Assembly (NCBI RefSeq): GCF_026914185.1
Contig: NC_070562.1
Coordinates: 2,852,001-2,916,000, forward strand
Reading direction: 5' to 3'
Source of the DNA: Puccinia triticina
Taxonomy: Eukaryota > Basidiomycota > Pucciniomycetes > Pucciniales > Pucciniaceae
Length of the DNA stretch: 64,000 nt
Part shown: positions 9,225 through 34,838 of the stretch, piece by piece
How the letters are laid out: each line of letters opens with the position of its first letter
Position numbering within the stretch: position 1 is the first letter of the stretch
Position numbers and translations under genes: made by a program
The notes under the pieces: model-generated
The model's input: only the letters and a program-made list of their open reading frames with translations
Databases searched by the model: none
Told to the model about the DNA's origin: nothing

Positions 9225-10671
9225 GGGTCAGCCTAAATGCACTCCAAAAAAATCCCAAAAGCACTCCAAAAGTGAGTGTATGGAGTGTGCACTCCAATGA
9301 TTGTTGGAGTACAGACTAGAGTACTCCAAGTCAATTGGAGTGCAGAACCGGGGACTCAAGACTCTTTGGAGTGCACCACAAAGAACTCCAGTGGCCAGGA
9401 AATGTAATGAGTGCCCATGAGTCTCACTCCATCAGATTGGATTGCATTCCCCCAGCACTCCATTCCTGATATTTCTCCTCCTCAAAAGGGGAGTGCAGTA
9501 CTGTGCACTCCAGCCAGAGCTTGAGTGCCTACAACTTCAACCGGGCTATGTACAAACACACCCCACTTGATCCTCCTGATATCCATGACCGGTACAGACC
9601 GGCATTGAGCGGATTAACATCTCCTCTCAATGACCGGTCTGTACCGGACCGCCGGTCATTGAGGGAAATCACACCTCTTGATGACTGGTCTGTGCCGGTC
9701 ATTGAGGGGAGTAACATCTCCTCTCGATGACCGGTCTGTGCCGGTCACCGAGGGGACTCACACGTCTCGATGACCGGCGCGGACCGGTGACACCTCCCGA
9801 TGACCGGCACAGACCGGTCATCGAGGGGACTCACACCTCAATGATCGGTCACACCGGTCATCGAGGCTAATAACACCTCCTCTCGATGACCGGTGATGAC
9901 CGGTCATCGAGAGGGCTCACACCTCTCGATGATTGGTCAGTCCGGTCATCGAGGGTAATAACACCTCTCAATGACCGGTCATCACCGGTCATCGAGGTGA
10001 GTCACATCCCTCGATGACCGGTCAGACCGGTCATCGAGGGGAATAACACCTCCTCTGGATGACCGGTGTGTACCAGTCATCGAGGGTAGGTGCTACTCTC
10101 AATGACCAGTCGGTCTGACCGGTCATCAAGAGGAGGTGCTACTCCCCTCGGTGACCGGCACAGACCGGTCATCGAGGGGACTCACACCTCTCGATGACCG
10201 GTGATGACCGGTCATCGAGAGGTGTGAGTCCTCTCGATGACCGGTGGTGACCGGTCATCGAGAGGTGTGAGTCCTCTGGATGACCGGTCGTGTGAGTCCC
10301 CTCAATGACCGGTCCAGACCGGTCATCGAGAGGTGTGATTGCTGTGGGCACTCCAAAAAAAAGGAGACTTGGAGTGCACCCCAATGCACTCCATTTTGTA
10401 TTTGCTAGCTGGAGTGCAAAGCCAAAATCCTTCACTGAAAAGGTGGAGTGCTTGGGCTTGCACTCCATTTTTTTTGGAGTGCATCTAGCTGCACTCCCCT
10501 ATTTTGGTCAATTTTGGAGTACCCAGTTGTGTACTCCAATAAACATGGAGTGCCCATCTTGTTTTGGGAGTACAAAATCAAGGCACTCCAATTTTTTTGG
10601 AGTGCTGGCCCCCCAAAGCCAAAAATGTGGAGTGCATGAAGTAAAAGTTTGGAGTGCATTTAGGCTGACCC
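9225..10671. mobile_element. 1447-bp non-autonomous Mutator-like element with 9-bp target duplication
   Basis: The inverted ends 9225-9248 and 10648-10671 match exactly over 24 bases (GGGTCAGCCTAAATGCACTC...). They are flanked by a perfect 9-bp direct repeat TAACTTTTT (9216-9224 and 10672-10680). A 9-bp duplication is typical of Mutator-like (MULE) transposition. Subterminal regions on both sides are studded with ACTCCAAA / TTTGGAGTG motifs, candidate transposase-binding sites. The centre is the TCGATGACCGGT array. There is no transposase. Confidence 0.82.
9585..10335. repeat. Dyad minisatellite array, TCGATGACCGGT core
   Basis: Some sixteen units of about 40-50 bp run across the centre of the MULE-like element. 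Each is TCGATGACCGGT - short spacer - ACCGGTCATCGA followed by GAGGGGACTCACACC-type linkers. Units are inverted repeats with CCGG at the stem tip; spacers and linkers vary more than stems. The stem is shared with the arrays at 27755-28335 and 34133-34735. Confidence 0.85.
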
Positions 10672-10680
10672 TAACTTTTT

Positions 10681-11700
10681 TTCCTGCGCACTGCATGCAT
10701 AAAAATTTCAGATCACAGAGAAGTATGCATAAAATGAAACCTCTGGAATTTTTGGCAATAGTGTGCCATCAGAACGTGAGATATGAGGGGTGCGCAGCGG
10801 GATTAGTAGCAAAATGACTGCTGACTGTATAACTTTTTTGTTACAGACCCAAACAGTTTGAAACTTCCAGGAATCCCTTAATGATGACTATTATCTGTGA
10901 TATCCAACAATTGGAAATAGTGTGTTGTCATAACATGAGATATAAGGCATTGTAACTCCACATAATCACATTATTACCTTTCATGCACTGTCACTGTGCA
11001 TTTAACCTTGGTTCACTAAAAGAAAAAATCAAGCAACTGCCAGGAACTGAGGCAGCTGAGGACCCTGTCAAGCCTCTTTCAAACCAGCTCATGTAAATAT
11101 GAGCCAAAATGCACCTTTTCTATGGGTAAAATTGGGGTTTTGTGCTTGGAACCCCATTTTTGATATCATTTAAAAGAGTATTTACACAAATTTAATCTTC
11201 ACCCCCTCCATGAAAAGTATGATTTTCAGGCATTCAATGTTTTTTACAACTTTTTTTGGCCTGCTTATTATGTTTTTTTCTGATCTGAAGCAATTTTGCT
11301 ATAAACTCTGAACAACTACATGAGTACGCGGCACGCCAGTTCAAAAAAAAAACTCCCAAATTGCTACCAAATTGATTATTGCAATTATTCATCAGCATCA
11401 TTTTGGAAAAAAAATATGTATTGCTCCAGTTACATGAGCCGGTTCAGCAGAGGCTTGCCTGGGTCCTGGCAATCAAGCAGCCCAGGCACGCCAAAACAAG
11501 TCATATCAGGACAAAAACTGATGGTTTTCAAAAATGATTATAAAAATAATGAGCAGTGATAAAAAACACTACATAACACCACAACAGCAAGAAGAAGCAG
11601 GCCCTCATTATCTGTGAAGCAAATTGGCTGGATGTGAACAGGAAAGCAGCTGCAGGGAGAGAAAGGCAAAATAGAGGGTTTTCAGCCCAAGTTAAAAAAC
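10681..11700. other. Non-coding repeat-like region
   Basis: Two diverged direct copies of a ~40-bp segment (about 10749-10788 and 10908-10947, core AATAGTGTG...GTGAGATAT) lie side by side. The stretch 10995-11050 (AAATCAAGCAACTGCCAG) resembles 5205-5235 and 18665-18690, so an old dispersed repeat is likely. No gene is visible. Confidence 0.4.
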
Positions 11701-11703
11701 TCA

Positions 11704-12062
11704 TCATGCAGGAATTTTGACATAAGGACCTCCACTGGCAGGGACAGCTCTGCTGCTTGCTTCCACTTCAGGCCTAGTCAAGCTTGAGGTTGTCAGTCTG
11801 TTGGGTTGGGCTGACATTGCAAATTTTCCCCAAGCGGCCTGAAGCCAGTCGGTTTGGGCAGCCCATTGGCGGGCCCGTCCAATTGTCACCCCCAAATGTT
11901 AGAATGTGGGATCCAGAAGTATCCGCACATATCCACAGGTTTGGGAACCTCGGATCTTAGATATCTGGTGTGGTCCGAGATATCTGGTGTGATCCGCGGT
12001 CCTCTACCAGATATCCCGGATTATCTACCGGATGTCCCACACGGGATACTGGCTAAGGGTTG
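11704..12062 (-). mobile_element. Possible LTR-retrotransposon end with gag-like start (fragment)
   Basis: On the minus strand a segment ending CATTCTAACA (11897-11906), complementary to a TGTTAGAATG start, is followed by a GGGGGTGACAATTGG stretch and then a short ORF (11895-11704, 63 codons, containing TRPEVEASSRAVPASGG). LTR end, primer-site-like gap and N-terminal gag ORF would be consistent with a copia-type fragment. I cannot match the primer site to a tRNA with confidence, and the other end of the LTR is unclear. Confidence 0.3.
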
Positions 12063-12144
12063 AATTAAATACATTGTTTGTAATCCAAGTAGGTAATCGA
12101 TGAGAGAAAAGGGCAGGGAGGAGAAGGAATGGGTTCGAGGATGA

Positions 12145-13422
12145 TTACCAGCCGAAGACAAGATCTAAAGCGCGATTGATGTAGGAGCTATTGGCCCCGT
12201 CTTTGGCCGGATCTTCGGCCTGGTTCTGAAAGATTGACGGATTGGGTTTACTAGCGTTGCTGATCATGCCGAGGAGGCCATTGTCGTTGGATTGTGCCGG
12301 GGTTGCGAAGGCTTCTGTGGAGTCGTAGGTCTTGAGCGAGCGACTGACGATCATGCTACCAGACCGAGGCAGCCCAGCAGCCGAGGTGCCCAGCTTACGC
12401 TGCTCGGAGCCTGCCCGGCTGTCCAGTGTATCAGTTGGGTTGTAGGAGCTATCGGCGAACTTGCAGCCAATCATGATGATCCCGCCGAGGATCTCGCCGT
12501 TCTTCCTAACCGCCCGCTGGGCCGCCATGCTGTGCTTGTAACTCACCGTCGCCCAGTTGCCCCCCTCCGTCGAAAGCTCTGGCGGGCAGACGAGCTCGCC
12601 GATCGAGCTGAAGTGGTCCATCACAAACGATTGCTGAGAGGGCGTGAATCCAAAGACATGAACCTTGTAGCCAGTCGACGAGCTCGTCTGTGGGGCCTGG
12701 TCGGCATGAGAGGACTGGTGGGTGGCTTGGTTGGATAGGTGTGTTGTCAATGAGGAGGCTAGTGAACGGTGGCCAGAAAGATCCTAGTGGGAAGTGTGGA
12801 ATGTCAGTGGGTGATACTTCTCGAATGCCTTTGTCAACAGAGAAACTCACGTGTCGAGAAGATTTCGAGTTGGACGGTTCACCATCCAGTAGGCTTTCTT
12901 TTGGTGGAGCGTCATCTTCCATCGCGTGACTCATTCGTTTAGATTTAATCGAGTTGGACATCTTGCTCGTGGATCCAAACAGGCCAGAGTTACGAGAAGA
13001 CTTGAGAGGGGTTGAGCTGTTAAGTTTTTGCGAAAAAAAGGACAGATGCACGGGATCAGTGGGATGACTAAATACAGCCGCAGCAAGGTGGATGGTCAAG
13101 TGGTGGCATACTCTTTGAAGGCAAACAATCCGCCACCCGAGCCACGATACGGACTTTTGGAAGCCGATCCTGGGCCGGTACCAGTACGCATCCTATTGGG
13201 GTTGATAGGACTGGAGACCCAGTCGTCCTGATCGGGCATGTTGTTCCTCTGGCTGATAGCATTCATGCTCTGGGTGTGGTCCATGTGGTGATGTCCCGTG
13301 CTGGTCGTCGAGATATAACCTGCCGAGTATTGTCTGGGGCCATCCGAGCCGACGGACGGATTGAGGTTGAGTGGCGAGCCGCCCATGGAGCCTCCGAAGT
13401 TGGGTGATTGTGGGAAGGGCAT
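12145..13422 (-). CDS. NUP53: Nucleoporin of the Nup53/Nup35 (MPPN, RRM-Nup35) family
   Basis: Three exons on the minus strand (13422-13112, 13016-12851, 12783-12145) with GT/AG introns give 371 residues in a closed frame. The N-terminal ~200 residues are Ser/Gly/Asn rich. A Nup35-type RRM follows, from TGYKVHVFGFTP through GNWATVSYKHSMAAQRAVRKNG to GGIIMIGCKFAD. The last residues, INRALDLVFGW, match the amphipathic C-terminal helix by which Nup53 binds the nuclear-envelope membrane. The protein is a linker nucleoporin of the inner ring of the nuclear pore. The start is the first ATG of the frame; the gene is divergent from the PLC-like gene. The family call is firm; the symbol follows the yeast name. 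Confidence 0.88.
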
Positions 13423-13882
13423 GGATGGATAATGCGGCCAAGGTGTTTGTCAAGAAGAGCGTGGTGGTCGTGGGCGACTGAAGTGGCCGTATTGAAAATT
13501 GCGAAGCGTGTTCCCTCTGGGCCGCGCCCCCCGGATCCCCGCGACCCGACAAGTAGCCTCGAACACCGGGGGTATGTATTTGTTTAATTTCTCAGGACAT
13601 ACATGTATCAGTACATAAATGAAGAAAAAAAAGCAGGATCCCCAGCGGGAGCTTGTTGAGCTGATCTGGGGCAAAAAAGAACAAAAGTTTATCATGGAAA
13701 GAGGCAGGCACAAAGGGGAAAGTGAAAAGAGGGGTGAAAACCCATTATCCGTGTGCCAATGACGGAGGCTCGCTTCGCACCCCCCGGGGGCCCGCAGTTT
13801 CGAGGGACTTTACTATCGAAGATTCCCCGATCAGCGTAATACATATGTAAGCGCTCAAGCTTATCACGGGCCCCCCTCCCCC
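13423..13882. promoter_or_regulatory. Intergenic region between divergent NUP53 and the next plus-strand genes
   Basis: About 460 bp between the NUP53 start and the ORF at 13883. It is GC-mixed, with C/G-rich dyads (CCCCCCGGGGGCCC near 13780) and no clear TATA box. It probably holds both promoters. Confidence 0.35.
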
Positions 13883-14452
13883 GTGGGAGAGGCTAGGGTC
13901 CCCGCGGCTCGGCCGCCTAGCAAAGAGAGCCAGCAGTCGGTTGCTCAAGCTCTCCGGCTTCATCCCAACGTGCAAAAAACCGTCTTGTCAGTCTCGTTGA
14001 CCATTGGTGCTCTCGGACTGTCGCTCTTACTCTTCAAGCAGAAGGAAAGCACGACTACTAGCGATTCGAAGGACATGCTCACCAGCTCATCCTCAGCCGA
14101 CTCCACCCCCAGCCAGTCAACAACAGCCTCCCTCAGGTCATCATCAGCAGCAGCAGCACCAAAAAAGAAACCCATCAGACACTCCCAGTCCATCCTCAAC
14201 CTCGCCTCAGCCACCCTCCATCTCACCAGCCCATTCACCCCAGACCACTCCGCCATCAGACTCAAGATCGACAACCAGACCGCACCAGCCGACCAGCACC
14301 AGCACCGGGCAGCCATCAGGATCGCACAATGGCCAACCAAACTCAAGAACACCCTCCACATCAAACATTCCGCCTACCGGCTATCCTCATACCGTCAGTC
14401 GGCCCCAGCAGAACTACTAGAGACACCCATGCTGACTTTCCTCATAAATTAA
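13883..14452 (+). CDS. Hypothetical ORF with one membrane segment, possibly 5' exon(s) of the PLC-like gene
   Basis: The frame opens at ATG 13883 and encodes about 60 residues ending in a hydrophobic segment (TVLSVSLTIGALGLSLLLF) followed by KQK, then Ser/Thr/Ala-rich low-complexity sequence. A different frame overlapping 14004-14420 is also Pro/Ser/Gln rich, so the real reading frame after about 14100 is uncertain. It lies directly before and on the same strand as the PLC-like gene, so it may supply an N-terminal membrane anchor through an intron I could not place. No family recognised. Confidence 0.35.
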   Translation: MGEARVPAARPPSKESQQSVAQALRLHPNVQKTVLSVSLTIGALGLSLLLFKQKESTTTSDSKDMLTSSSSADSTPSQSTTASLRSSSAAAAPKKKPIRHSQSILNLASATLHLTSPFTPDHSAIRLKIDNQTAPADQHQHRAAIRIAQWPTKLKNTLHIKHSAYRLSSYRQSAPAELLETPMLTFLIN

Positions 14453-14496
14453 CAACAGGCGGAACATGCTTCAACCCAAACTCAATACCCCCCGTC

Positions 14497-17400
14497 ATGA
14501 AACAGTTCACCGACAGCTTGCTGACCATCGCCGAGATCGACCAGCCCAGCGGACTCTTTGAAAGCTCGCGATCGGCCAAGTCCCGCCTCGGCTGGGTCTA
14601 CTTCGACCTCATCAAGCCCAACGGATACCTCCTCCATCTCCAGGCGTTCATCAAGCTCTCGCGGAGCGGCACGATCACCTCCGGCCTGCTTGGCCGCTTC
14701 GACCTCGACTCGAGTCGGGAGCGCCCGATGCCCTCCGGCCAGATCGGCACCGTCGAGATCCTCCCCTCCCTCAACCTCGTCCTCTTCAGACTCACCCATG
14801 CCGATATCCAACACGAGGAAAACACCGTCGACGACACCCCGCTCAGACCCCCGCTCGGTCTGCCCACCAAACGGCTCTCTACCTTCTCATACGTCTCCCA
14901 TCCTCAAACTGTCCTCTCCTTCCGGGTCGGTAAAGACGCCCGATACCATGAACACCAGCGCTCCTCTGTCTCCTCAACAACTCATTTGCCTAAATTCATC
15001 CGATCTGATCATACCCTAGGCGGACTCAGCTCGCTCCATGCGCTCCTCTACATCCAACACGCTAACACCATCGATCCTATCCTCCATCGTCCGTCCCTCT
15101 CCTTCCCTCATCCTCCCCTCTATTCAATAGAAGAAAAAAAACACTTATATGTCCCTCCTACTCCCCCCTAGGCTCGGCTTCAATCAATCCACTGAGGTGA
15201 GGCTAGTTACGTTTTATATCTACCACGAATGCTGAAGCATCTCTAATTTTACTCTTTTAACAAACAAAAAAAAAAAAACAGTGGACTAGTGTCAGTACTT
15301 CAACTCTAATCGAAGACGTAAGAGCGATATCCAAACTAACTTTGGGCACTGAATCACAGGACCGAGGGAGATAAGACCCAGCGATTAGCGTCAACAGCCG
15401 ATACCAAATCTGTCTTTTTACCCCATCTAGACCTCTCCATCTCCTACGGCTTCCACGATTCTAGGATGGGCAAACGTCATTCGGTTCGTTCTCTCCCCTC
15501 TCTTCCAGTCGAAAAGATCCCAGAAAACGTCCGGATTGATCTGTCGATCCTCTGCTTTTATAGATGTATGCTTATGCCACGCCGAATTACAGCTCTTGGT
15601 TGGGCGATTTGATCGATCATGATAAACGGTAAACATGTCTTTTCCTTCTCTTGAAGAGCAAGCGCATCGAATTGATACCAATGAACAATACTGCCTAGAT
15701 GGCTGGATGTACGTTTCTCTAAGCTGGTCTTACAAGGCTCACACGATGCGGGCATGTTTACCAGCTTACATCCTGGGTCAGTCACAATCTTTCATTTCTT
15801 TATTTGTTTTCTCAGGAGGCTAAATCGGATAAAGTGCACTCAACCATCATCTACGCAGGTTTGTCAAGATGATCACGAAGATGAAGTTGGATTCAGACAT
15901 GTAAGTCTGTGAGAGACTTTCAAGTTAAGGTGTAAAAGCTTAGAGATGCAATGTTCCCCACACAGTGGAAACTTTTTGATCGATCATGGAATCTCATTTG
16001 TCCACATCCTAACCAAGCTGCTCAAGACCTTCAACATCGACCTCGAGCTGGCCATCTGCAACATAGCAAATACCCAGAAAGATGTGATCTTCGACCAACT
16101 CCGTCACGGTACCCGGTAGGTCACAGCCTTCCTCCTCTTACGTCCACCGCGCGCGCTCTCTCTTTCTCTTTCACGCCCGGTTCGGTGTTCACACGTCCTC
16201 CTTTCTTCCGCAGATTCTTCGATTTCAGGTTTGTTTTCTAGGGGCTTAGGTTCTTCTGTGTCTCTTCGGCTCATCTGTTGTGTTGTTGTCGTTGGAAAAT
16301 GAATCATTTAAAAGTCTGTTTTCTATAGACCAGGGTATTGTTTCCACGACTGTCTGAACGGGGAACGAGGTCGGATCCATCACCAACATGCGTAAGTTGT
16401 CTTTCGTCATAAAAACAATCCATTCTCTTCTTCAATTTGTTAATAAGTGAATCTTGTGGGTAGGTGTGTGCCGGGATATGAATATGTTAAAGCTCTCGAG
16501 GAAACCTTCTCGTTCTTGGTTTCCCATCCTAAGGAAATCGTCGTCTTTGAGGTATGTATGCCAATTTTTCTGGGGAATTCGTGGCGGACGAAAAAGCTTT
16601 TCTTATGTTTTTTTTTCTTCCTTGATCAACAGCTGAAAAGTGACGGTAAGCAAAAACCGCTCAAAGGGATCTCCCAAATCACCCAAAAACAAAAACAAAA
16701 ACAAAAACGCATAAACTGAGACGAGAAAAGAAATGCCAACAGGATTTATTTCGAGTAAGACGACATGGCGGAAGGACTCGATCCCATTCCACTCGATGAT
16801 CCCGACGAAGGCGGCGCTAGCCTCGGCGCTAGATGAGGCGAAGCAGAACCTGCAGGCCGAGCTGCCCCAAGTCCATGCGATCCGGGTCGGCGGGCCCGCG
16901 GACCTTGATCGGCCGATCGGAGACCTCCTTAAAGAGCAGGTCCGGTTCATCATCATCCATCGAATGGGCCAGCCTCCCGAACAAGGCTGGGATTGGGAAC
17001 GCGATGACTCTTATGGTTTGCGCTCTTCGTCCTGAGTTCTCTCTCTCTCTTTCCCCCTGCATTCACATGAATTTTTATTTATTTTTCACTCTTTCGAAAT
17101 CAGATCATACTTTATACGATACCGGTCAGCTACGTTTTTTGTACATTGCATTAGCTATTTTTGGGGAAGATGTGCTCATACCGCTTCTTCTTCGGTGCTG
17201 GGCATTTGCACCTTGAAAGATCGGCCGGATGAGATTATCCAAGCTTTGGATCTCGCGCATGCTCGCAACTCGGTCCCTCTCAAGACTGAGACCGACAAAC
17301 CACACGTGGGCACAATTTATCAACTCCAAGTTCAGTTTTTTTCCCCTTGTTTTTGTTTGATGGACATATACTGATGTAAAGGGGAAAAAAACAATTGTGG

Positions 17401-18064
17401 TCTTGCGCGTGCATGTCGCTGTTCTTCCGGATGGGTTTCGGCTGTCAGGCTACTCCGACGAAGAGTTAAGCTTCCCCTCCTTACTCCGAGAGAAGAATAA
17501 ATGAGCTGACAAAGGATGATTTGATGATGCGTGTTGTACATGTACAGGCATAGCAGACGACATTCTCACCTCGCTCACATATTCCAAAGCGTCCTCTTTG
17601 CTTGTATATACCAAAGCTAATCTGGACCCGTTCACTTATAGCTGGGTCAAAGGCAGACATTTCATCGAACCTGGTAACTCTTTCTTTTCAGAATATATTT
17701 TTGGTCTCGAATCGGATGCATGTACCTGTTGATTTGCGCGGTCTCACTATTTTTTCTTTTTTTTTCGGTGGCATTGGCAGGCTTGGTTGTTTTGGTCAGT
17801 CCCGTCTCTCCACTTGCCTTCCCATTTTGCTCACATCGGTAGGCACCACCAATCCTCATCGACACTGACATTGATTTTTTTGGGGGGAATCAGCTGAACG
17901 ATTTTGTGGACTCAGGTTGAGTCTTCTCAATCTTACTTTACTTTTCATTTACCAGTCAAAATTGAAACGGAAGACTGAACTATGGTGTGGTCTTTTTTCC
18001 AGTGCTGACTGAACATGCGATCGAAAAATCTAAGATCAGGGCCGGCCTGTTCTCGTCCCTCTAA
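14497..18064 (+). CDS. PLC-like phosphodiesterase with a PI-PLC X-type domain, 19 exons
   Basis: Exons: 14497-15088, 15172-15196, 15360-15483, 15564-15628, 15699-15776, 15859-15900, 15966-16115, 16214-16228, 16329-16391, 16464-16551, 16633-16645, 16743-17015, 17104-17124, 17220-17329, 17449-17464, 17548-17673, 17781-17794, 17894-17915, 18003-18064; all phases agree (632 residues). The catalytic-type domain has GSHDAGMF (first His), QLRHGTRFFDFR and GYCFHDC (second His), then VRFIIIHRMG and FIEPGLVVLLNDFVD. There is no Y domain, EF-hand or C2 domain as in animal PLCs; fungal relatives are single-X-domain proteins whose substrate is mostly unknown. The N-terminal ~200 residues match nothing I know. 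The start is uncertain: ATG 14329 is also in frame, and 13883 may belong to it. Confidence 0.8.
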
Positions 18065-22576: not shown

Positions 22577-22584
22577 GCATGTGG

Positions 22585-23507: not shown

Positions 23508-24470
23508 TAGAGATAGTCATTTGGGACCCGGGTACCGCACCGCTTTTTGGCCAATTTCAGGTACCTAGTACTGCACCCGGCACCGCCTGGGAGGTACCAC
23601 GGGTACCGCTCTGGCGGGTACCACGGGTACCACCCGTGATATTTTTTGGTGTGGCAGTGTCCTGCTGTCCTGCTTGCTCCATCCAGTTTGTTGCCGTCCT
23701 TTGCGACAAGCTGGAGGGCAAACAGGCCACTGTTCGCCAGGAGGGACTCCTCCCGGCAAGCACTGGCTCTCCTCTTTGACCAGAGGAATCCCTCCGGTTG
23801 AGGAGGAATACACACCTCTGACCGGAGGAATTGATCCATCCGATTGGAGGCATGTACACCTCTTTGACCCGAGGAATGGCTCCAGTCAAAGAGGCAAGTC
23901 CACCCAGCAAGCTGGATATGCATCCAGCTCACCCGGTGGACATCCCTCGCCAAGCTGGATACATAATATGTATCCAGCTTGCCAAGATGGCTCATCCCTC
24001 ACCAAGATGGATACACAATATCCAGCTCAGCTAGGGAGGTCTCACGGCAAGCTGGACACATCCAGCTCCCTTGGAAGATTCCTCTTGGCGAGCTGGATAC
24101 ATATGTATCCCGCTTGGCGAGGGGACTCCTCTCCAGCTCATCAAGAGGTTCTTTGGCGTCCGCGAGCTGGATACAATATATGTATCCAGCTTTGCGGGAG
24201 GAATCCCCTTGGCGAGCTGGATACGCCGAGAGGAATCCTCCCAGCTTGCTGGGAGGCCTTCGCCGAGCTGGATCTACCAAGTCCAGGCTTTCAATCCCCC
24301 GGGGGGTGGGAGGTACTTGGAGGCGGTACCCGGGTACCGCACCGCTTTCCGGCCAAAACCAGGTACCTAGTACTGCACCCGGCACCGCTGCGCGGGTGCA
24401 AGGCGGGTGCAAGGGGGTACCCGCCAAGCGGTACTAGGTACCCGCCGCGGGTACCGAATGAATATCTCTA
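23508..24470. mobile_element. 963-bp hAT-like MITE with 8-bp target duplication
   Basis: The left end is TAGAGATAGTCATTTGGGAC; the right end is the complement of TAGAGATATTCATTCGGTAC. The perfect duplication ATCCAATG flanks it (23500-23507, 24471-24478). TAGAG fits the hAT terminal consensus YARNG. Subterminal inverted blocks GGTACCGCACCGCTTT / GGTACCTAGTACTGCACC occur on both sides. Skipping it with one duplication joins two gag segments in frame. The centre is the array at 23700-24320. Confidence 0.85.
23700..24320. repeat. Dyad minisatellite array (AGCTGGATACATATGTATCC type)
   Basis: Units of about 40-55 bp mix two dyads. One is GAGGAAT..CCTCCGGTTGAGGAGGAATAC..CCTCTGACCGGAGG (positions 23745-23850). 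The other is GGCGAGCTGGATACATATG paired with TATCCAGCTTGCCAAG (23915-24290). Linkers are GGGAGGAATCCCC or GAGGGACTCCTC types, like those of the arrays at 8255-8690 and 60280-60830. It fills the hAT-like MITE. Confidence 0.7.
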
Positions 24471-24854: not shown

Positions 24855-24940
24855 CCCCCCCCCCCCCACCCCCCCCCAACCCCCCAAAAAACCCTGTCAG
24901 CTCTTTCTTTGCCCCCCCCCCCCCCCCCCCCCCCCCTCCT
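24855..24940. repeat. Poly-C tracts
   Basis: Long C runs (about 13 and 8 C at 24855-24878, then about 25 C at 24912-24936) are interrupted by CAACCCCCCAAAAAACCCTG. They are simple-sequence DNA inside the DIRS region and possible i-motif/G-quadruplex material. The exact lengths may be unreliable. Confidence 0.85.
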
Positions 24941-25910: not shown

Positions 25911-27122
25911 TGACGACATGGGACAAATTTGAGGCAACATCAAAATTCTTCCGTAGTCAAGCCCAACTGCTCCTCCTTGCAATCTTCAATTGGGAGAAAG
26001 CATACCGCCAGATCCCAACAACCAAGGATCAATGGTGCTACCTCATGGTCAAGGATTTCAACGGTGGAATCCTAATTGACACATGAATTGCCTTTGGCGG
26101 GGTAGCGGGATGCAGATTTTTTGGCAGACCGGCAGACGCGTGGAAGGAGCTCATGCAGAAAGAGTGTGACCTCATCAACATTTTCCAATGGTTCAATGAC
26201 AATTTATTCATCAAGACCGCCCAATCAATGGTGGAAATGGATCATATAGTTGCACAATCAGAGCAGCTAGGTGTCAAAACAAACACAAGAAGATTCTCCC
26301 CCTTCAAAGAGGAGCAGAAGTACATTGGCTTTTTCTGGAATGCCACAAATAAGACCGTCTGGCTCCCAGACAATAAGAAGTATCAGAGGGTACAACAAAG
26401 GAAAGCGTTCCTCATCCCCAAAACCAAGTTCACCTTCACACAGGTCAAACAGCTGGCAGGTTGACTAAATCATGTCTCATACATCCTCCCACAGTTACAA
26501 TGCTATCTCAAAAGCCTGTACCAATGGATGAATGGTTGGATCCACCAGAGGATGGACCGCACGCTCCCGGAACTTGGAAGACACCAAAGTTGACCTCAAT
26601 TACTGGCTATTGACGCTCCTCCAATATAAGGAGACCAGGATGATCCAAAACCCTGACCCAATCAAAATTGGGTGGGTGGGCAACACCTCCACCAACTTTG
26701 GAATCAGAATCCTTGTTGGTAAGAGGTGGGCCCAATTTCAACTGGCCCAAGGCTGGGACAAATGACCAAAACCAAAAAGGGACATAGCATGGCTGGAGAC
26801 GGTTGCAATTTGCCTCGGCCTCCTCCTCCTCAAAGAACTAGGAATCCGGCTGGGGAAAACACTGATAGTATGGACAGACAACACCACCACCAAGAAAGTG
26901 ATCTGACAGCGGAAATCCAAACACCCAGCTGTCAACAAGGAATGAAAGATCATCCAAAAGATGCTGGTTGACATGGAGATAGATATGTTTTCCCAACACG
27001 TCACATCAGAGGAAAACCGGGCTGACGCTCTGTCACATGGAGACAGATCCAGACACAGAAAACAGTTGCAGGTGGCAGTGGTAGTTCCGTGGGACCTGGA
27101 GCCAAGACTGTTTCAAGTGTAG
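25911..27122 (+). pseudogene. DIRS reverse transcriptase and RNase H domains, degraded
   Basis: The RT reads FNWEKAYRQIPTTKDQW, then FGGVAGCRFFGRPADAW, WFNDNLFIKTAQS and EEQKYIGFFWNATNKTVWLP. The RNase H region has IGWVGNTSTNFGI, WTDNTTTKKV and HVTSEENRADALSHGDRS. At least five in-frame stops interrupt it. The motif A aspartate is Asn (FNWEKAY) and motif C reads FNDN in place of xxDD, so the polymerase centre is lost. The DIRS assignment rests on the tyrosine recombinase downstream. Confidence 0.75.
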
Positions 27123-27244
27123 ATTTCATCCCGGGCTTGCCCGCATGTTTCATCCTATCCATATTTTTCCCTCTTGTTGCTCCCCCATCATCCATGCAAT
27201 AAAATCCCCCTCTTTCCGTGCCACACTCTCAAAAAGATAACTAT

Positions 27245-27602
27245 CAGAGAGCAAGCCCACCTCCAAGCATGTCATCCGCGGGGAAGCTAGCGGGTCTGAC
27301 AACCCTTTCCAGAAGAGGATCTCCCTCCAGAGAACTCACAACTCAAGGAAAACATTTCCTCCTTGGCTATCAGTGGAACACCCTGGCATGCTACAACTCC
27401 ACAATCAAGAAGTATCTCAAATTCACTGAGAGTACCAACTGGATCCCATTCCAGCTCCCTCTGTTAGCCAAAGATATATACAGCTTCTGCTGGCAGGCTG
27501 GCAGGACCTTTGACTGCCAAGCCACCCACAAGCTATCTTCTGTTACCTTAACAAAGTACCTGGCAGGGATCCAGATGTGAAACACAATGCACAACACACC
27601 TT
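27245..27602 (+). pseudogene. DIRS tyrosine recombinase, N-terminal part
   Basis: From ATG 27245 the frame carries GKHFLLGYQWNTLACYNSTIKKYLKFTE and QATHKLSSVTLTKYLAGIQ, matching the N-terminal SAM-like DNA-binding part of YR-element recombinases (motifs quoted in pieces; the first spans 27346-27430). A TGA follows (27578-27580), then the Harbinger-like insert. The frame resumes at 28623. Confidence 0.7.
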
Positions 27603-27603
27603 A

Positions 27604-28619
27604 GAGCATCTCCAACGGTCCGGGGGGCAGTTGGCCTGCGTTCCCCGGCCCGCGAGCACATGTCACAGCAGTCGCAGCTCAGCTCCAATTATGGACTGGC
27701 AGTTCAAGCCGCAATCTGACAGACAGATCACTCCTCCAGCACCACCCACCACCCTTGTTCCGGTCATCAATAGGAGTATGGCATACTCCCCTCAATGACC
27801 GGAACGTTCTGGTCATCGTGAGGCATGTACATCGATGACCAGAACATTCTGGTCATTGGGACGCAGTATCTCGATGACCGGAGCAAACGAAGGAAAAACT
27901 CCTCTCAATAACCCAAGCGGACCAGTTATTGAGAGGGGTCATCTTATATTATACTCCTCTTCAATGACCGGAGAGAACCGTCCAGTCATTGAGCGGAGTT
28001 GTTTACTCCTCTCAATGACTGGAGAGGAAGGACCACACAGGTATATTGATGACCGGAGCAAACCCGGTCATCAAGAGGAGGAAACACTCCTCTCAATTAC
28101 CCAAGCGGCCCAGTCATCAAGGGGAGTTATCTTAAATTGTACTCTTCTCGATGACAGGAACGGGCCCGGTCATTGAGGATGTACAAGTGTTTACTCCTCT
28201 CAATGAACGGAGAGAACCGGTCATTGAGGTGATTGTTTACCCCTCTTGATTACTGGCTGAGAGAACCAGTAATCAAGAGGAGTACATATTTGCTCCGCTC
28301 AGTGACCGGAACAGACCCGGTTATCGAGAGGAGTCTTGACGTTGATCCAATGCAGACATTTTTTTTCTGTCTTGGGGAGCTTCAAGTAGGAGTTGGGGTG
28401 TGCTGTGGACCATCTTTGCTGATGAAGTCGAGTGGATGAAGGTGTGTGGTCAATTGCGGCTGGGAGGCGACCCGCAGAAGTCAGCAGGTGATCGCGGGTT
28501 TGACTGCCCCCGGCAGTGTTCCCAGGGTCATTCTGCGGGTCCGTTAGCGCGCAAGAAAGGAACCCGGGCAGCCAAAGTTTGCCCCCGAACGCCCAGTTGC
28601 GGCTCCGTTAGAGATGCTC
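27604..28619. mobile_element. 1016-bp PIF/Harbinger-like MITE with TTA target duplication
   Basis: The ends GAGCATCTCCAACGG (27604-27618) and CCGTTAGAGATGCTC (28605-28619) are inverted with one mismatch, flanked by TTA on both sides (27601-27603, 28620-28622). GAGCATCTCCAAC is a familiar PIF/Harbinger MITE end. Skipping the element and one TTA joins the two recombinase parts in frame. The centre is a TCGATGACCGG-type array. Confidence 0.85.
27755..28335. repeat. Dyad minisatellite array, variant of the TCGATGACCGGT family
   Basis: About twelve units of 40-50 bp contain CTCAATGACCGGA, a short spacer with GAAC or GAGA, then CCGGTCATTGAG, joined by GGGGAGTTNTTTACTCCTC-like linkers. The stem is the same as in the arrays at 9585-10335 and 34133-34735, with more A-rich spacers. 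It lies inside the TTA-flanked MITE. Confidence 0.8.
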
Positions 28620-28622
28620 TTA

Positions 28623-29335
28623 CCGGCACAAGACAAAGAACAAGGTCACCACTCTTTTAAGGTCCTCTGCTTACATGAACACAGACCAGTCCTCAAGGCC
28701 CAAGAAAAGTGCAGTCCTCATCCAACAATTGGTGATGCTCACCTCTGCTTGGATAAAGGGGACCAAGTTCCAAAAGGCACTCCTAGAATTATGCCTTGTG
28801 GCGTTAATGGGTCTGGCCCGTCTTGGAGAGCTTACCTACAACAACAGATTGGGACCCCTCCGCCAGTCAGTGTCTGTCCTAGTAAGCAATGTTCAGATCA
28901 AGGAGGTTGGCGTCAAGAGGAGAGCAACCATAGCCATTTGCAGAGCCAAAAAAGCCGGCCCTGGCGTAACCCAAGAACTCCACCTCTCATCAGTGAAACT
29001 TATGATCTGCCCAATCCTGGCACTCAAAAGACATATCTGGAATGCTGCCAGCCAAGACACCTCGTTGTTTGGGTACTGGGAGGCGGGATCAAGAGTCCAC
29101 ATCACTGTGTCTACCACATGCCAAGCCTTGACTCAATTCTGGAACAACGACGGCTGCACCAGTATCTCCAGACACTCCTTCAGGGTGGGAGGAACTTCTT
29201 TCTTCAGTACGTAAGGAGGACCTTTGCTGGCTTGGATGGTGGGAATCGGACTGCTTCAAACTGTACATCAGAAAATACACCAACAAAGAAAGCTCTGACA
29301 CCAGCAGTTTTCTCAAAGAGCTCCAGAAGTGCTGA
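28623..29335 (+). pseudogene. DIRS tyrosine recombinase, catalytic part
   Basis: The frame continues as YRHKTKNKVTTLLRSSAY... and carries LVALMGLARLGELTYN (first catalytic Arg), KRHIWNAASQD and SRHSFRVGGTSFF (His-x-x-Arg). A one-base shift near 29210 then leads to WWESDCFKLYIRKYTNKE with the expected catalytic Tyr (in KLYIRKY), ending at TGA 29333-29335. R, H-x-x-R and Y are all still recognisable, unlike the RT centre. Confidence 0.78.
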
Positions 29336-30320
29336 TCAGCTAGCCCCCTCCATTCCTCCTGGGAGTAATGCAGCTGTATCCCCCCCTTTTTTTCTTTCCC
29401 ACCTGTTTGGGCAGGAGCAGAATCTGCTTAGGCACATGGCTCTGAGCTCTCCCAAGCCAGAGTGATGGGTCTAGTGCCTTTGCCCTCACACCCTCCGGGT
29501 ACTTTCTGCTCTGGGAGGATCTGGTCCACTGCCTTCTCATCCCTCAGGAACTTCTCCCTGTCAAGTCCCCCCTCCCGGGGGACTTCAACAAAGAGAAGCA
29601 CCACAAGAGCGCAGCACAAAGGATTGGGGACTAATCCTCCCCCGACCCACACACAAGAGTCTGGGGAAGTCACTTACTGACTTCCAGGACTCTCACCAGT
29701 GAGCAGACGGCTGTGCCAGCACATCTACACCACGGGTTCATTTTTTGAGATGCAGTGTGCTGGCTCAACTGTGGAGTCTGAAAAAGGGTGGACTTGAGTC
29801 TGCTTGACCTGTCTGCCCTTTATCTGACAGTGGAGGTTGGTCAAGGGCAGCAATGAGTCATGTGTACGTTGGTCTGACCCATCTGACCCAAGTGTAATGC
29901 CAACCCTGCTGACCATTACATTGGCATTGCACTTGGGTTGACCGGGGTAATCCAACTTACCCAACCAACATGAGGTGGCCTCAGTAGGCAGGCCAACAAC
30001 CTCATCTGGTTGGGCCAGCCTGAGGGACTTGTTGGCTTGACCAGTTGGTCAAGTGCAAGTCCACCACGACTTGCCAGCCGGCCAGGGCTTACCCAGCTGA
30101 GGAAGCCAACGTCAAGCCAACCAAAAAAAAAAATCAAATAGGTTCTCTGTGCCTGTTTCCATGTAAGGAAAAAGGCTAAATAGGAGAGAAATCACAAAAA
30201 AAATAAAAACAAAAGTGAGGTCTTGAGAAGAATGAGAGTGTCTGCTTTGCTCATAATACTCAGTAAACCCTGGATTCAAGAGATATAATGCATATCACTG
30301 TGTTCTACTTTTAAAAAGTC
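29336..30320. other. Non-coding flank of the DIRS element with hairpins
   Basis: Imperfect inverted repeats occur at 29887-29940 (AAGTGTAATGCCAA against TTGGCATTGCACTTGG) and 30020-30115 (GTTGGCTTGAC against GTCAAGCCAAC). They suggest a further small foldback element. No gene is visible. Confidence 0.4.
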
Positions 30321-30325
30321 TGCCA

Positions 30326-30410
30326 TGGTCTAGTGGTCATCATTGATGTCTGGACTCAAGTGCTGATCAAGATGAGCTGGTCATCATGGGTTCAAGCCCC
30401 AGGGAAAAAG
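30326..30410 (+). other. tRNA-like sequence with pol III boxes A and B (possible SINE head)
   Basis: TGGTCTAGTGG (about 30332-30342) fits box A and GGTTCAAGCCC (about 30391-30401) fits box B, about 50 bp apart. The T-stem is almost intact, but the would-be acceptor stem (TCTGCCA against GGAAAAA) does not pair. A degenerate tRNA or tRNA-derived SINE head is more likely than a working tRNA gene. Confidence 0.4.
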
Positions 30411-32316
30411 TACTTTTTGCAAGTTGCCCTCAGGTCTCTTGACCCAATCCTGACTGCGGCACCTACGGCAGACCAACATTGGATGCAGGGCTGACAGCAG
30501 TGCACCAACGTCAAACCGGTGTGGGGAGTTTGCTTGACCGTGGGCTGACAGAGTGGTTTGACACCAACCCTACGCTGGCAGTCAAGCCAACTGCGGGTGC
30601 CATCTTTTCCCGCCCAAATATCTGACGGGACGCGGAAGGGTTGGCCCAACCCCAATTTTTGTGTTGAGACACAGTCAACTACACTCTGTGGTGTAGACTA
30701 AGAGAGAGCGTTGTAAAGCTCAAAAGTGTTTCTGAGAACCTTTTGCTGAGTGCAGAAAGGGATGTATGAGGAAACCTCTGCCTTTCCTGGTTCACTAGAC
30801 ACTAAAACAAGCCCACCAATCTCAGATTGGCAGGTTTAATTTAGTGATATTAGAGTGTTATCAAAAAGATAACTGTTGTTATAAAGTGGGTGCAATGAAG
30901 TTGCTAAAATGTGTTATGAGTGAGGAGTCTGGACTTCAACCAGGTGATAGTTGGTCAAAGAGGACCCCTCAGAGGTTTGTGTTATGTAATGTGAGTGTTG
31001 TGTAGATTTGTTATTTTGTGTGTAAGTGTTTTGTAATGTGTGTAAAACCAAAATATAGGGTGACTGATATATTGTGGAGTGAGCAGTTGTGTACTTTGTT
31101 ATAGGGGAAACTGAGTGCAGGTAGTCTGCTGGGGGGCAAAGTTACAACAGGGGAGGAGAGCCTCCTTTTATAGACAACAGTGAGGGATTTTAGCTCCAGA
31201 GGAGCTCCACATGAGAGATTTTAGCTAGGTACATGAGGGTTTTTGGCTAGTACACATGCTGAATGGGTGAATGTGATTGGTCAGGACAGTACAGGTGATT
31301 ATGGGTTATGACATGCAGGCTGAATCAGGAGGTGTGATTGGTCAGGACAGAATGTTAGTGTAGTCATGCTGTAACCAGGTCACCTGCTGTCATTATGCAA
31401 CAAAAATCCACTAGCGCATGCAGCTAGTGCATGCAGCTATCACATGCATTTAGCACCTGCATGTGTACACTGTATGTATGTAAGTAATGATGCAGCTATG
31501 TGTAAATATGTATGTAGCTATTTATGTAACCGGGTATGTAACTAAGTGTTGTAAATGTGGATTGTGTAACTGTTTGGGGTTGTAAGGGGTATTGTGAGTG
31601 TATAAGAGTATGTAACTTCTGAGTGTTCTGTAAGGCAAGACTAGGGGTGAATTTGTCCCTAGAGACTGAATTTTGAGGAATATTAAGTGATTGATAAGAG
31701 GAAAAGGGAGATTAAGAGTAAAACTAATAGAAATAAGAAAGAAAAGCAGAAAATTTTGATTTTGGTATATGGGATACCATAAAGCATACCACAGTGTTAG
31801 CGTCAACCAAGGCGCAGCAGTGCGTTGAGCCACACGCAACCGGCAAGGGACCACATGCCGGAAACCCCCTGCCAGACCTCCCTGCGGCATGTAGGTAGGA
31901 ATGGAGGGTCCGGTTAGGACAGACAACAGATTCTAGCCACTTTGGTGGTTGATCTTACTTGCACTGCAACTGCTGCTGGGGGCCCAAGCGTTTGTACAAC
32001 AAACAGATTGGTTTGACTGCATCAAATTTGGTCTACATGGATTGAAAGGCCAAGGTGAGCATGATAAGTTGTATGAGAATTTGGGTTGAACTTGTGAAGT
32101 CCCTCTTCTGCGGGGGGGCAGGCAGCCCACAGAGGAGAATGGTGTGGACCTCCTCATCCAATTTTCAAAGGAAAATATTGAAAATTGGACCAGCAGGAAT
32201 TTTTGCAAGATCACAAAAATCTGAAAATCTGACTCTTCAAGATTGAACTGAAGTTGATTCTTGGCTTCTCAATCAGCATTCCTCCTTCATAAAAGTCCTC
32301 CAAAATTTTTCTATTC
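30411..32316. other. Repeat-like non-coding region, possibly remains of an LTR element
   Basis: T/G-rich sequence with near-identical short direct repeats (TGTGATTGGTCAGGACAG at about 31271 and 31338) and a CATGCAGCTAGTGCATGCAG patch at 31415-31445. No ORF with a recognisable domain and no clear pair of LTRs were found. Confidence 0.35.
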
Positions 32317-32734
32317 ATTGTCTTTACCAAAAAGCTTGGACCTTTTCCGCCTTGACTTGGTATTTGTTTAAGACATACTGTCTTTTTTTTGCTGGGTTTT
32401 ATCCTGACATCTGTCAGACAAGGCCAAAGCCAAAAATCACCCCCAGAGCCACCATTCTCCAGTACATGATCTCGGAGTACAGCTAGTGAGAATCTGAGTT
32501 CATATTTGGAACCAGGGCAACTTGTAGACCCTATAGCCCACCCATAACAATTATCACCCACTCCCCTCTGCCCCAACGGATGGGCCAACCAACAACCCAG
32601 CCGCTTTCTGATCTGAGAGGGAGCATGGCAGCTGTGGGATGTCCAAGGCAGAAACTGATTTCAAATAGCTAGAGGACTAGTGATATATCCATACAAAAAG
32701 CGGACAGAGGTCCAAGCTTTTTGTTAAAGACAAT
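32317..32734. mobile_element. 418-bp MITE, family with the copy at 53686-54113
   Basis: Inverted ends of 27 bp (32317-32343 and 32708-32734, ATTGTCTTTACCAAAAAGCT...) with one mismatch. The interior motifs CATCTGTCAGA, GAGTTCATANTTGGAACCAG and GGCTGTGGGAT recur in the same order at 53686-54113. No target duplication is clear. Non-coding. Confidence 0.7.
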
Positions 32735-33279
32735 ACCATCCTGGGATGACAGTCTTGTCCTCTATTGATTACATAAGGAATGGTTTGTTTTAAAGAAAAA
32801 AAAAAAAGTCATGTTGGACTAAAATTGGCTTGTAAAAAATCCTACACATACAATTTTTGAAAAATTCAAAATCCTTCTTGATGGGGATGAAGACCCCCAT
32901 CTTGGGCACACCCTGCCCAACACTATTATCCACTGGGTGGTTGTGTGTATTTTACATGATTTTTACAAACAAAAAGGACCTCAGAAGCCCAACCGTGAGA
33001 CGCGAGCATGCGCGTTTTAGACACAAGGCTCTCCCGCACTTCGTGCGGTCGACGGAGAGGCTGTACAAGCTCGCATTTGGGTGAGTGCATACCTTTCCTG
33101 CTCTGCAGTTGAGACAGGCCTTGTTCCGGTGCTTGCGGTTGGTGGTCATGCTGGTCCGCGGAGAAGGCCGACTCGCGAGCAGAGGCCGGCCCGGTGGTCG
33201 GGTTCAGGTGCGGGGGATTAGCAGTTTACAGTGTCCTCAGGCGAGGGCCGAGCATTCTTGGAAAACTTTCGGTATTGCA
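32735..33279. other. Upstream region of MED31
   Basis: The first part is AT rich with an A12 tract (about 32796). The last ~280 bp are GC rich, with GGAGAGGCTGTACAAGCTCGC (33055-33075) resembling 63610-63632. The promoter of MED31 must lie here; I see no TATA box. Confidence 0.4.
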
Positions 33280-33897
33280 ATGGCCAGCAACACGAATAAC
33301 CCGACTGACAGTAACGGCCTCCAAAAAGACAAGCAGGCCAATCAAGTGCGGTTCGAGGAAGACTTGGAAGTTGAGTATCCTCTCCTTTCGAGTTCAAACA
33401 GGGACAGCACAATCAGAAACTGATGACAATGCTGCGCGCTGCTTTGTAGTTTGTGCAATCCCTCGCCAACCCCCATTTCGTCCAAGAGTTAACATTAAAT
33501 GGGGCCCTTCGCTCTGAGACAATGATCAAGTGAGTCCCCCATCTCCACCATTCACTTTTTAATCTGCCGACAAGTATACTCCTCAAAAATTTTATCCTGT
33601 GGTTATCACATTGACCTGTGTATGACCTTGAGAAGTTATTTGGAATATCTCAAATACTTCCATCAGCCGGATTATGCCAGATTCGTCCGATACCCAAACG
33701 CATTGAAGATTCTTGATCTCCTCAACAGCTCGGAGCAGTTCCGAACGATGATCGAAACCCAGGAACATGCCCAACTGTTGACTGACAAGTTTATCCAAAA
33801 CTGGATCTCACTCAGCGGCCGCTTGAATAAGATCGGTCCTGCGGTTGTCAAAGAAGTGACTGGGGAGACCCCAGGAGAACATTTTCCTCAGCTCTAA
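33280..33897 (+). CDS. MED31: Mediator complex subunit 31 (SOH1)
   Basis: Exons 33280-33369, 33450-33529 and 33633-33897, with GT/AG introns, give 144 residues. The conserved MED31 core is complete: RFEEDLEFVQSLANPHFVQ, then SYLEYLKYFHQPDYARFVRY, then PNALKILDLLNSSEQFRTMI. MED31 is a small, highly conserved middle-module subunit of Mediator, linking activators to RNA polymerase II in the nucleus. The start gives a short Asn/Thr-rich N-terminus, as in fungal homologs. The third-exon acceptor (TTGAG|AAG at 33632) is inferred from the frame. The gene is an island between repeat districts. Confidence 0.92.
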
Positions 33898-33952
33898 ATT
33901 ATTAGCCTCTGATTGATCCTTTTTCTCCCACTTTCTTCGCCTTTTTGACATT

Positions 33953-34838
33953 GGAGGACTTCCCTTCGATTTACACAGCTGTGCAAAGTCAGATCTGACA
34001 CATGTAAAGTCAGATCTGACTCACCTTGTAATTTTTAGCTTTAGAAGCTTTTCCGCAGGCTTGAGATGCCAGAATACCTGCCAGATTTACAACCCCAGGT
34101 ATTCCAGCAACTCGGGCCTCATCCCTCATTGTTAAACCGGTCATCGAGAGTACACAGCCCTCTCGATGACCGGTATAGACCGGTCATCGAGAGGACACAG
34201 CCCACTCGATGACCGGCCTGTACCTTGAGAGGACACATCCCTCTCGATGGCCGGTACAGACCGGTCATCGAGAGTACAGACCCCTCTCGATCGCCGGTAC
34301 GGACCGGTCATTGAGAGGGTACAGTGTCCTCTCGATGCCCGGTACAGATGTGTCCTCTGTACCAGTCATCGAGAGGACACATGCCTCTCGATGACCGGTG
34401 GGTAGGACATCAAGAGGACACAACGCGGGTCATCGAGAGGACTCAAGCCTCTCGATGGCCGGTACAGATGTACCCCCTCGATGACCGGCACAGATCTGCC
34501 AGAGGGTGGTGCCCTCTCTCTCGATGGCCGGTCTGTACCGGCCATCGAGAGGGATGTGTCCTCTCGAGGTACAGGCCGATCATCGAGTGGGCTATGTCCT
34601 CGCGATGACCGGTCTATACCGGCCATCGAGAGGGTGTACTCTCGATGGCCGGTCTCGACCGGGCATCTAGAGGGTTGCGTCGACCCTCTCGATGACCGGT
34701 CTGTACCAGCCATCGAGAGGGATGTTCTGGTTTGATCTAGCCGCTGAAAAGTGCGTGTAAAACCAGGGTGTAAAAATCTGGCTTTACAAGTGCCAAATCT
34801 AACTTTACACGGCCGTGTAAATCGAAGGGAAGTCCTCC
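33953..34838. mobile_element. 886-bp MITE with dyad array, downstream of MED31
   Basis: Perfect 24-bp inverted ends (33953-33976 and 34815-34838, GGAGGACTTCCCTTCGATTT...). ATT occurs on both flanks (33950-33952, 34839-34841), a possible 3-bp duplication. Subterminal AAGTCAGATCTGAC repeats lie at 33988-34025. It starts only 55 bp after the MED31 stop codon and may provide its 3' end. The centre is the 34133-34735 array. Confidence 0.8.
34133..34735. repeat. Dyad minisatellite array, TCGATGACCGGT core
   Basis: About fourteen units of ~45 bp: CTCTCGATGACCGGT - ACAG - ACCGGTCATCGAGAGG, joined by ACACAGCCC or GTACAGTGTCC linkers. The stems are longer and better preserved than in the other two arrays of this family. 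Confidence 0.85.

What the first reader, a model, noticed from the sequence alone, without database searches (positions are those of the whole stretch)
9585..34735. The same dyad minisatellite sits inside three transposons with unrelated ends
The arrays at 9585-10335, 27755-28335 and 34133-34735 share the stem TCGATGACCGGT / ACCGGTCATCGA (A/G variants in the middle copy). Their host elements differ in terminal repeats and target duplications: 9-bp TAACTTTTT (MULE type), TTA with GAGCATCTCCAAC ends (Harbinger type) and ATT with GGAGGACTTCCC ends. Either one array hops between elements (gene conversion, template switching, a mobile satellite), or it has a function that different non-autonomous elements acquire, such as hairpin transcripts or a protein-binding platform. 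I know no described unit that explains this.
Basis: partly seen in the sequence, partly recalled or inferred. Interest (0 to 1): 0.85.

Follow-up and report, generated by a model that had tools for sequence, protein, structure and literature searches.

The report
Hairpin minisatellite shared by unrelated transposons
In a rust-fungus genome the same short hairpin repeat array sits inside several unrelated kinds of jumping genes, apparently picked up as passenger DNA and then multiplied with them, which makes it a good case for asking how unrelated transposons exchange internal sequence.

Summary
Three arrays of one dyad half-unit (CTCTCGATGACCGGT, alternating orientation, period about 43 bp) lie inside elements whose ends do not align: E1 (family F1, 8-9 bp target duplications), E2 (TWA, Harbinger-type) and E3 (ATT). 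The window's own genome (122.8 Mb, rust fungus in or near Puccinia) has 286 exact hairpins (reversed-pattern control 0). In 20 sampled regions, 20 of 32 arrays lie between inverted-repeat ends of several families (F1, F1b, hAT-type, an 8-bp-duplication family G8, Harbinger-like, a CACTG-ended one). Eight lie inside one end of a dispersed family without inverted ends (X), 2 beside one F1 end, 2 unresolved. Two F1-ended copies with a MULE transposase domain lack the array in the 3.9-4.4 kb read but have F1-type ACTCC subterminal repeats, so the array looks like cargo. Arrays mostly follow element family, but the two groups of X arrays are each closer to F1 arrays than to each other. Best reading: rare transfer of array tracts between elements, then slippage and spread by transposition. 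A shared function is not excluded. Minisatellites in MITEs and foldback elements are known; one dyad array in this many transposon types is the unusual part.

The parts
9225..10671 (.). Element E1 (family F1): Mutator-type non-autonomous element, ends GGGTCAGCCTAAATGCACTCC
   Evidence: first 24 bases of both ends match, duplication TAACTTTTT; 247+254 copies of the end genome-wide with up to 2 mismatches, reversed control 0; MULE domain inside two other copies with this left end
9216..9224 (.). Left target duplication TAACTTTTT of E1
10672..10680 (.). Right target duplication TAACTTTTT of E1
9225..9580 (.). F1-type subterminal GCACTCC/GGAGTGC dyad repeats (left)
   Evidence: 96-99% identical over 356 bp in 7 of the 9 other two-ended F1 copies (L019 aligns over 327 bp, L021 over 24 bp); same motif type in L046 and L047
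9582..10333 (.). Dyad array 1, 33-34 half-units of CTCTCGATGACCGGT in alternating orientation
10345..10671 (.). F1-type ACTCC/GGAGT dyad repeats (right)
27604..28619 (.). Element E2: PIF/Harbinger-type MITE, ends GAGCATCTCCAACGG (right end one mismatch), duplication TTA
   Evidence: TWA precedes 90 of 132 exact copies of the end
27755..28335 (.). Dyad array 2, 23 half-units, CpG-decayed
33953..34838 (.). Element E3: ends GGAGGACTTCCCTTCGATTTACAC, duplication ATT, superfamily not settled
   Evidence: two further copies at other sites with ATT on both sides, L040 and L044; ATT before 21 ends
34133..34735 (.). Dyad array 3, 26 half-units
23508..24470 (.). Element E4: hAT-type (TAGAGATA ends, duplication ATCCAATG). 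By eye its ends resemble those of L017:1687-2830, which does carry the array; E4 itself carries two other dyad arrays
   Evidence: its arrays show no clear match to arrays 1-3; the likeness of the ends was not tested

Best explanation
The array is foreign cargo carried by non-autonomous transposons. A palindromic minisatellite (half-unit CTCTCGATGACCGGT, inverted pairs that can form hairpins with stems up to about 16 bp) was acquired separately by several unrelated element families. Acquisition was most likely by copying of array tracts during repair or replication of breaks in palindrome-rich elements (template switching or gene conversion; inferred). Inside each family it then grew and shrank by slippage and spread by that family's own transposition, giving family-specific dialects. 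Shown: same array, unrelated ends, family dialects, variable array length, absence from the part read of two F1-ended copies with a MULE domain, and multi-unit tracts shared between F1 and X. Inferred: the copying mechanism, its direction, and that slippage changes the length.
For: Similarity runs through whole units, with parts of loop and spacer, not the stem alone. Ends and array borders of E1, E2 and E3 are unrelated. Further hosts: G8 with exact 8-bp duplications TATGAAAA, TTTTTTTT (low complexity) and TTCTTTTT; a hAT-type element with GTAGACAA; in L019 an element with ends GAGC(A/T)TCT(C/T)CACCC and TCA and one with CACTGCGGGC and TAA, duplications read by eye; family X without inverted ends, 48+42 copies of its one known end. 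Two F1-ended copies with a MULE domain, 93% alike over 2.1 kb, have ACTCC repeats but 0 half-units in the 4.4 and 3.9 kb read. A short copy with the hAT-type ends has none. Mean 9-mer cosine of arrays: F1-F1 0.85, E3-E3 0.81 and G8-G8 0.86 (one pair each), between families 0.15-0.61. X group 1 with group 2 0.46, with F1 0.58 and 0.63. Best tracts: F1-X 222 bp at 87%, 214 bits; X group 1-group 2 131 bits. Half-units in G8 copies (up to 3 mismatches): 8, at least 34, 44 and 67. A second dyad array (E4b) also matches X loci L034 and L035 and L026:1458-1642, E 3e-7 to 5e-4, reversed control 0.
Against: No transfer was caught with breakpoints, and its direction is unknown. The MULE-domain copies are only 67-68% like E1 over the first 295 bp, so they are relatives and not shown to be the direct parent; their right halves were not read. 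The likeness of X and F1 arrays could partly be slow divergence from one ancestral array. Other cross-family tracts are modest (at most 113 bits). 36 of 1061 neighbouring half-units break the alternation.
Confidence: 0.6

Rival explanations
1. The array has a function that helps non-autonomous elements whatever their transposase, for example a host-protein binding platform with two sites per 43 bp, or a subterminal enhancer of transposition. Elements that picked it up were amplified.
For: Recurrence in many families; regular spacing (start distances 19 and 24 bp are the commonest); alternation 1025 of 1061; arrays near both ends of long F1 copies L021, L026 and L030 and of the F1 copy interrupted by a Ty3/gypsy element.
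Against: CpG decay in many arrays (E2 0.293 per CpG base; though E3 and G8 L020 show no CpG excess). Arms of one hairpin are no more alike than random arms in E1 and E3 and only weakly in E2 (p 0.045 before correction). hAT-type copy L043 lacks the array and E4 carries others. Two F1-ended copies with a MULE domain lack it in the part read.
Confidence: 0.2
2. The foldback arrays are transcribed into long double-stranded RNA; shared small RNAs then link the silencing of all array-bearing families.
For: Some elements are close to their own reverse complement (G8 L020 0.94 against 0.61 shuffled, E3 0.79 against 0.60; one shuffle each). Folding energies are 1.7 to 2.6 times the mean of five shuffles.
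Against: No expression or small-RNA data were available. E2 shows little long-range pairing (20 of 206 pairs span over 150 nt) and is weakly self-complementary (0.64 against 0.60).
Confidence: 0.1
3. One ancestral element held the array and its descendants acquired new ends (end replacement), rather than the array moving.
For: Arrays are homologous across families, and dialects mostly follow families.
Against: Flanks between array and ends are unrelated in E1, E2 and E3. F1 ends with ACTCC repeats also occur on MULE-domain copies without the array in the part read. TWA, ATT and 8-9 bp duplications imply different transposases.
Confidence: 0.06
4. The array is itself a mobile unit, or a nested element that inserted into the others.
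For: Same array in many hosts.
Against: No shared border sequence in the 40 bp outside the arrays of E1, E2 and E3 at p 0.03 or less. Duplications at the array borders themselves were not searched for systematically.
Confidence: 0.04

Closest known systems
Tetris and its TIR-220 repeats, Drosophila virilis (PMC4079207; abstract and passages seen)
   Same: Non-autonomous foldback element with internal tandem repeats of variable number, 8-10 bp duplications, placed in Mutator by its authors.
   Different: Unit about 220 bp. Its ends are shared with DAIBAM and its repeats form satellite arrays; the passages seen do not report the repeat in elements of other superfamilies.
SIRC repeats, Arabidopsis (PMC10342631; abstract and passages seen)
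   Same: Short repeats tied to MITEs, with hidden copies in MITEs, LTR/Gypsy, MuDR and Helitron elements.
   [quoted passage not shown] about 57% have no palindrome; a class of many sequences, not one dyad array.
Minisatellites in rice transposons (Inukai 2004; not held, known only through a passage in PMC1940011)
   Different: I could not see whether one unit was shared between unrelated families; this may be the nearest precedent.
MITE-borne tandem repeats in Xenopus, bivalves and Lepidoptera (review PMC9659126, passages seen); minisatellite in a Porphyromonas MITE (PMC4596501, listing and start of abstract only)
   Same: Tandem repeats inside MITEs, spread with them.
   Different: Where the passages seen name the carrier, it is one element family per repeat.

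Membership tests
Mutator-like element (F1, window E1) | target duplication of about 8-11 bp (range recalled) | tested here: met
   exact 8-9 bp in 7 of 10 two-ended copies; L030 7 bp, L021 and L026 none; TATATTTT in the gypsy-interrupted copy
Mutator-like element (F1, window E1) | MULE transposase in an element with the same ends | tested here: met
   left ends only: PF10551 E 4.8e-22 in L046, whose left end is the exact F1 end, and a PF10551 match 1.87 kb inside the exact F1 end at C2:3443061; right ends not read
PIF/Harbinger (window E2) | TWA target duplication | tested here: met
   90 of 132 exact ends preceded by TWA
PIF/Harbinger (window E2) | DDE_Tnp_4 transposase in an element with these ends | not tested
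   family common in the genome, not linked to this end
hAT (L017:1687-2830, window E4) | 8-bp target duplication with a TAGNG-type end (end type recalled) | tested here: met
   GTAGACAA in L017 and ATCCAATG in E4; not met in a third copy, L043
hAT (L017:1687-2830, window E4) | hAT transposase in an element with these ends | not tested
   PF05699 is common in the genome, not linked to these ends
E3 and G8 superfamilies | assignment by transposase | not tested
   duplications shown (ATT; 8 bp); no coding copy read
Foldback element (G8, E3) | element nearly its own reverse complement | tested here: met
   G8 0.94 and 0.88, E3 0.79 and 0.76 against about 0.60 shuffled; E1 0.71 and E2 0.64 are weaker
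Helitron (family X) | TC start, CTRR end with hairpin, insertion between A and T (recalled) | tested here: inconclusive
   the known end reads A then TCCAAG in the copies seen; the other end was not found

The most novel reading that the evidence does not exclude
Dyad minisatellites act as a common currency among selfish elements in this genome: modules that unrelated transposons (MULE, Harbinger, hAT, others and a family without inverted ends) acquire and keep because they confer something, such as a host-factor platform or shared small-RNA control. At least two such modules may be traded (the CGATGACCGGT array and the E4b-type array).
Probability: 0.2. Interest if true: 0.88.

Novelty: new variant of a known kind. 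Interest (0 to 1): 0.63.

Why it matters
In my understanding, transposon superfamilies are thought to exchange little internal sequence. Here one easily traced module marks exchanges between elements moved by different transposases, with hundreds of host-element ends in one genome. That makes it testable how non-autonomous elements gain their interiors, and whether palindromic minisatellites are mere passengers or do something for them.

Tried and rejected
Protein search with a translated stretch of the E3 array: 547 candidates, none at E<=10. The stem pattern gave 0 hits in viral contigs and one in a bacterial contig, L001, not examined further. An SMC frame searched in plasmids gave only distant SMC proteins. 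Papers searched for the unit's own letters: 47 hold one of six 10-12-mers; of the 20 listed, judged by title and start of abstract, none is about such a repeat. Rfam: no match in the window at gathering thresholds. Arm covariation as a test for hairpin selection: negative in E1 and E3, weak in E2. E4's arrays as a diverged fourth member: at best marginal (z up to 3.2 against shuffles). Likenesses that do not concern the three hosts but were seen: E1 5' end with E5 3' end, p 0.005, and E1 right flank with E4 left flank, p 0.01. The 2275-aa frame in the 11.5-kb F1 copy proved to be a nested Ty3/gypsy element, not a transposase. My first scan for inverted-repeat elements listed E1 but not E2, E3 or E4; redone differently. 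A count of arrays outside mobile elements in the whole genome was not possible. The sample is 20 regions on C1, C2 and the start of C3, in listing order, from loci with at least one exact hairpin; three further listed loci on C3 were not taken whole, and old or array-poor loci are under-sampled.
Full report
What is there. The window lies in an unnamed 122.8-Mb, 18-contig genome at C5:2852001-2916000. An SMC2-like frame is 92% identical, over 82% of its length, to a Puccinia sorghi protein, so the host is a rust fungus in or near Puccinia. The three arrays exist as described: of 74 near-matches to the 12-base stem in the window, 70 are in the arrays, against a shuffled mean of 3.3 for the whole window. 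The half-unit is CTCTCGATGACCGGT in alternating orientation. In the 38 arrays compared, 1025 of 1061 close neighbours alternate, with start distances mostly 19 and 24 bp, a full period near 43 bp. In the genome, 286 exact hairpins of two 12-base arms with 0-20 bases between them were found, reversed control 0.

The three hosts are different elements. E1 has 24 matching terminal bases and the 9-bp duplication TAACTTTTT; E2 has GAGCATCTCCAACGG-type ends (14 of 15 matching) with TTA; E3 has a 67-bp terminal repeat at 87% with ATT. Terminal 70 bp and array borders do not align between the three beyond shuffles, apart from one marginal pair. Genome-wide, F1 ends (E1) occur 247+254 times with up to 2 mismatches, E3 ends 49+53 times, and E2 ends 132 times exactly, 90 of them preceded by TWA. 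ATT precedes 21 E3 ends, and two further E3 copies at other sites, L040 and L044, have ATT on both sides. F1 is Mutator-like: two copies with the exact F1 left end have a MULE domain 1.8-1.9 kb inside on the same strand (positions). In one of them, L046, I confirmed the domain separately (E 4.8e-22). Their right ends were not read.

More hosts. Twenty regions of about 9 kb, taken in listing order from loci with an exact hairpin, hold 32 arrays of at least 4 half-units. From I class them as follows. 13 lie in nine F1 elements with both ends and 2 beside a single F1 end. 1 lies in a related family F1b (no duplication found), 1 in a hAT-type element with the exact 8-bp duplication GTAGACAA, and 2 in family G8. 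2 lie in Harbinger-like elements (one with TCA; one, L024, with a weak terminal match, E 0.002, and no clear duplication), and 1 in an element with CACTGCGGGC ends and TAA. 8 lie 0.4 to 3.9 kb inside the known end of family X, and 2 are unresolved (L031:466-742 at the edge of its region and L033:1246-2603, both between inverted repeats for which no duplication was found). Two of the eight X arrays (L022, L023) lie in a duplicated segment with identical right flanks, so they are not independent. G8 has exact 8-bp duplications in 3 of 3 copies seen on both sides, one of them all T. The known X end occurs 48+42 times; no two copies face each other within 20 kb (by eye in that list). Its other end is unknown, so that these arrays lie inside X is likely but not proven.

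The array is separate from F1's own repeats. F1 has subterminal ACTCC/GGAGT dyads. The two MULE-domain copies, 93% identical to each other over 2.1 kb, have such dyads but not one CGATGACCGGT half-unit in the 4.4 and 3.9 kb read. They are only 67-68% like E1 over the first 295 bp, so they are relatives, not the shown parent. On C1 and C2, 9 of 13 exact F1 end pairs contain at least one exact hairpin (counted by hand). Among hAT-type copies, L017 has the array and short L043, with the same end, has none. Window E4, whose ends look related by eye, has two other dyad arrays. Array size is labile: F1 copies whose left 356 bp are 96-99% like E1 hold arrays of very different length, and G8 copies hold 8, at least 34, 44 and 67 half-units.

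History of the arrays. By 9-mer content they mostly group by element family: F1-F1 0.85, G8-G8 0.86 and E3-E3 0.81 (one pair each), between-family means 0.15 to 0.61. Transfer is therefore not constant. X is the exception: X-X averages 0.60 and X-F1 0.61, because its two groups are less alike (0.46) than each is to F1 (0.58 and 0.63). The longest cross-family tracts are F1-X, the best 222 bp at 87%. I read this as transfer of multi-unit tracts between F1 and X, direction unknown. The middle window array looks different mainly because its CpG sites have decayed (0.293 transitions per CpG base, 0.043 per other base); the E3 window array and G8 L020 show no such excess. A second dyad array, that of E4 (E4b), also matches L034, L035 and L026:1458-1642, with no hit in the reversed control, so more than one module may be shared.

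How it probably works. Shown: one array type, unrelated ends, family dialects, lability, and absence from the part read of two F1-ended copies with a MULE domain. Inferred: non-autonomous elements acquire the array by copying from another element during repair or replication of palindrome-prone DNA, expand it by slippage, and spread it by transposition. Against a function in pairing, arms of one hairpin are no more alike than arms drawn at random in E1 and E3 (p 0.43 and 0.58), only slightly in E2 (p 0.045), and not at all for the alternative pairing. In favour of some function are the breadth of hosts, the regular spacing and the place near both ends of long F1 copies. Predicted folds are strong (E3 -598 against a mean of -305 kcal/mol in five shuffles), so a double-stranded RNA role remains possible but untested.

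Comparison with the known. Tandem repeats carried by MITEs and foldback elements are documented (PMC4079207, PMC9659126, PMC6947457; passages seen), and SIRC repeats in Arabidopsis have hidden copies in several element types (PMC10342631, passages seen). I found no description of one dyad array shared by MULE-, Harbinger- and hAT-type elements. This rests on ten searches of an open-access library whose listings were capped; the rice study of Inukai (2004) was not held. I therefore call it a new variant of a known kind.

Noticed in passing
window 2749-3417: Inverted-repeat element (93-bp ends, 89%) with a 21-bp repeat array in head-to-head orientation, inside a larger inverted repeat of about 2335-5031.
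   Followed up: partly
window 7938-9009: Element E5 with 55-bp ends at 89% and its own dyad array (CTCCCGGTCGACAGCC); no 8-10 bp duplication found.
   Followed up: partly
window 23900-24262; L034, L035; L026:1458-1642: A second dyad array type (CTGGATACATATGTATCCAG) in window E4 also matches these loci, reversed control 0: possibly another shared module.
   Followed up: partly
window 35743-36042: Inverted repeat (68 bp, 90%) with a shortened E3-like end (GGACTTCCCTTCG) and no CGATGACCGGT array; a further GGAGGACTTCCC lies inside it.
   Followed up: no
window 27604-34838; G000 C5:4910321 and C5:4917377: Window E3 has a 99.9% identical copy with nearly the same flanks about 2 Mb away on the same contig (L039), and an E2-type end with TTA lies about 7 kb before it: probably a segmental duplication.
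   Followed up: partly
G000 C3:4079398-4090940: An F1 element split by a Ty3/gypsy retrotransposon with one open 2275-aa frame.
   Followed up: partly
G000 C13:5461977-5472644: Four MULE domain hits spaced exactly 3462 bp apart: apparently a tandem array of a MULE-coding unit.
   Followed up: no
L022, L023, L027, L034, L035, L036: Family X: dispersed element with one constant end (ATCCAAGTTTATTAAAATCACAGAAACACGG) whose reverse strand reads AATAAA about 7 bases before that end; class unknown.
   Followed up: partly
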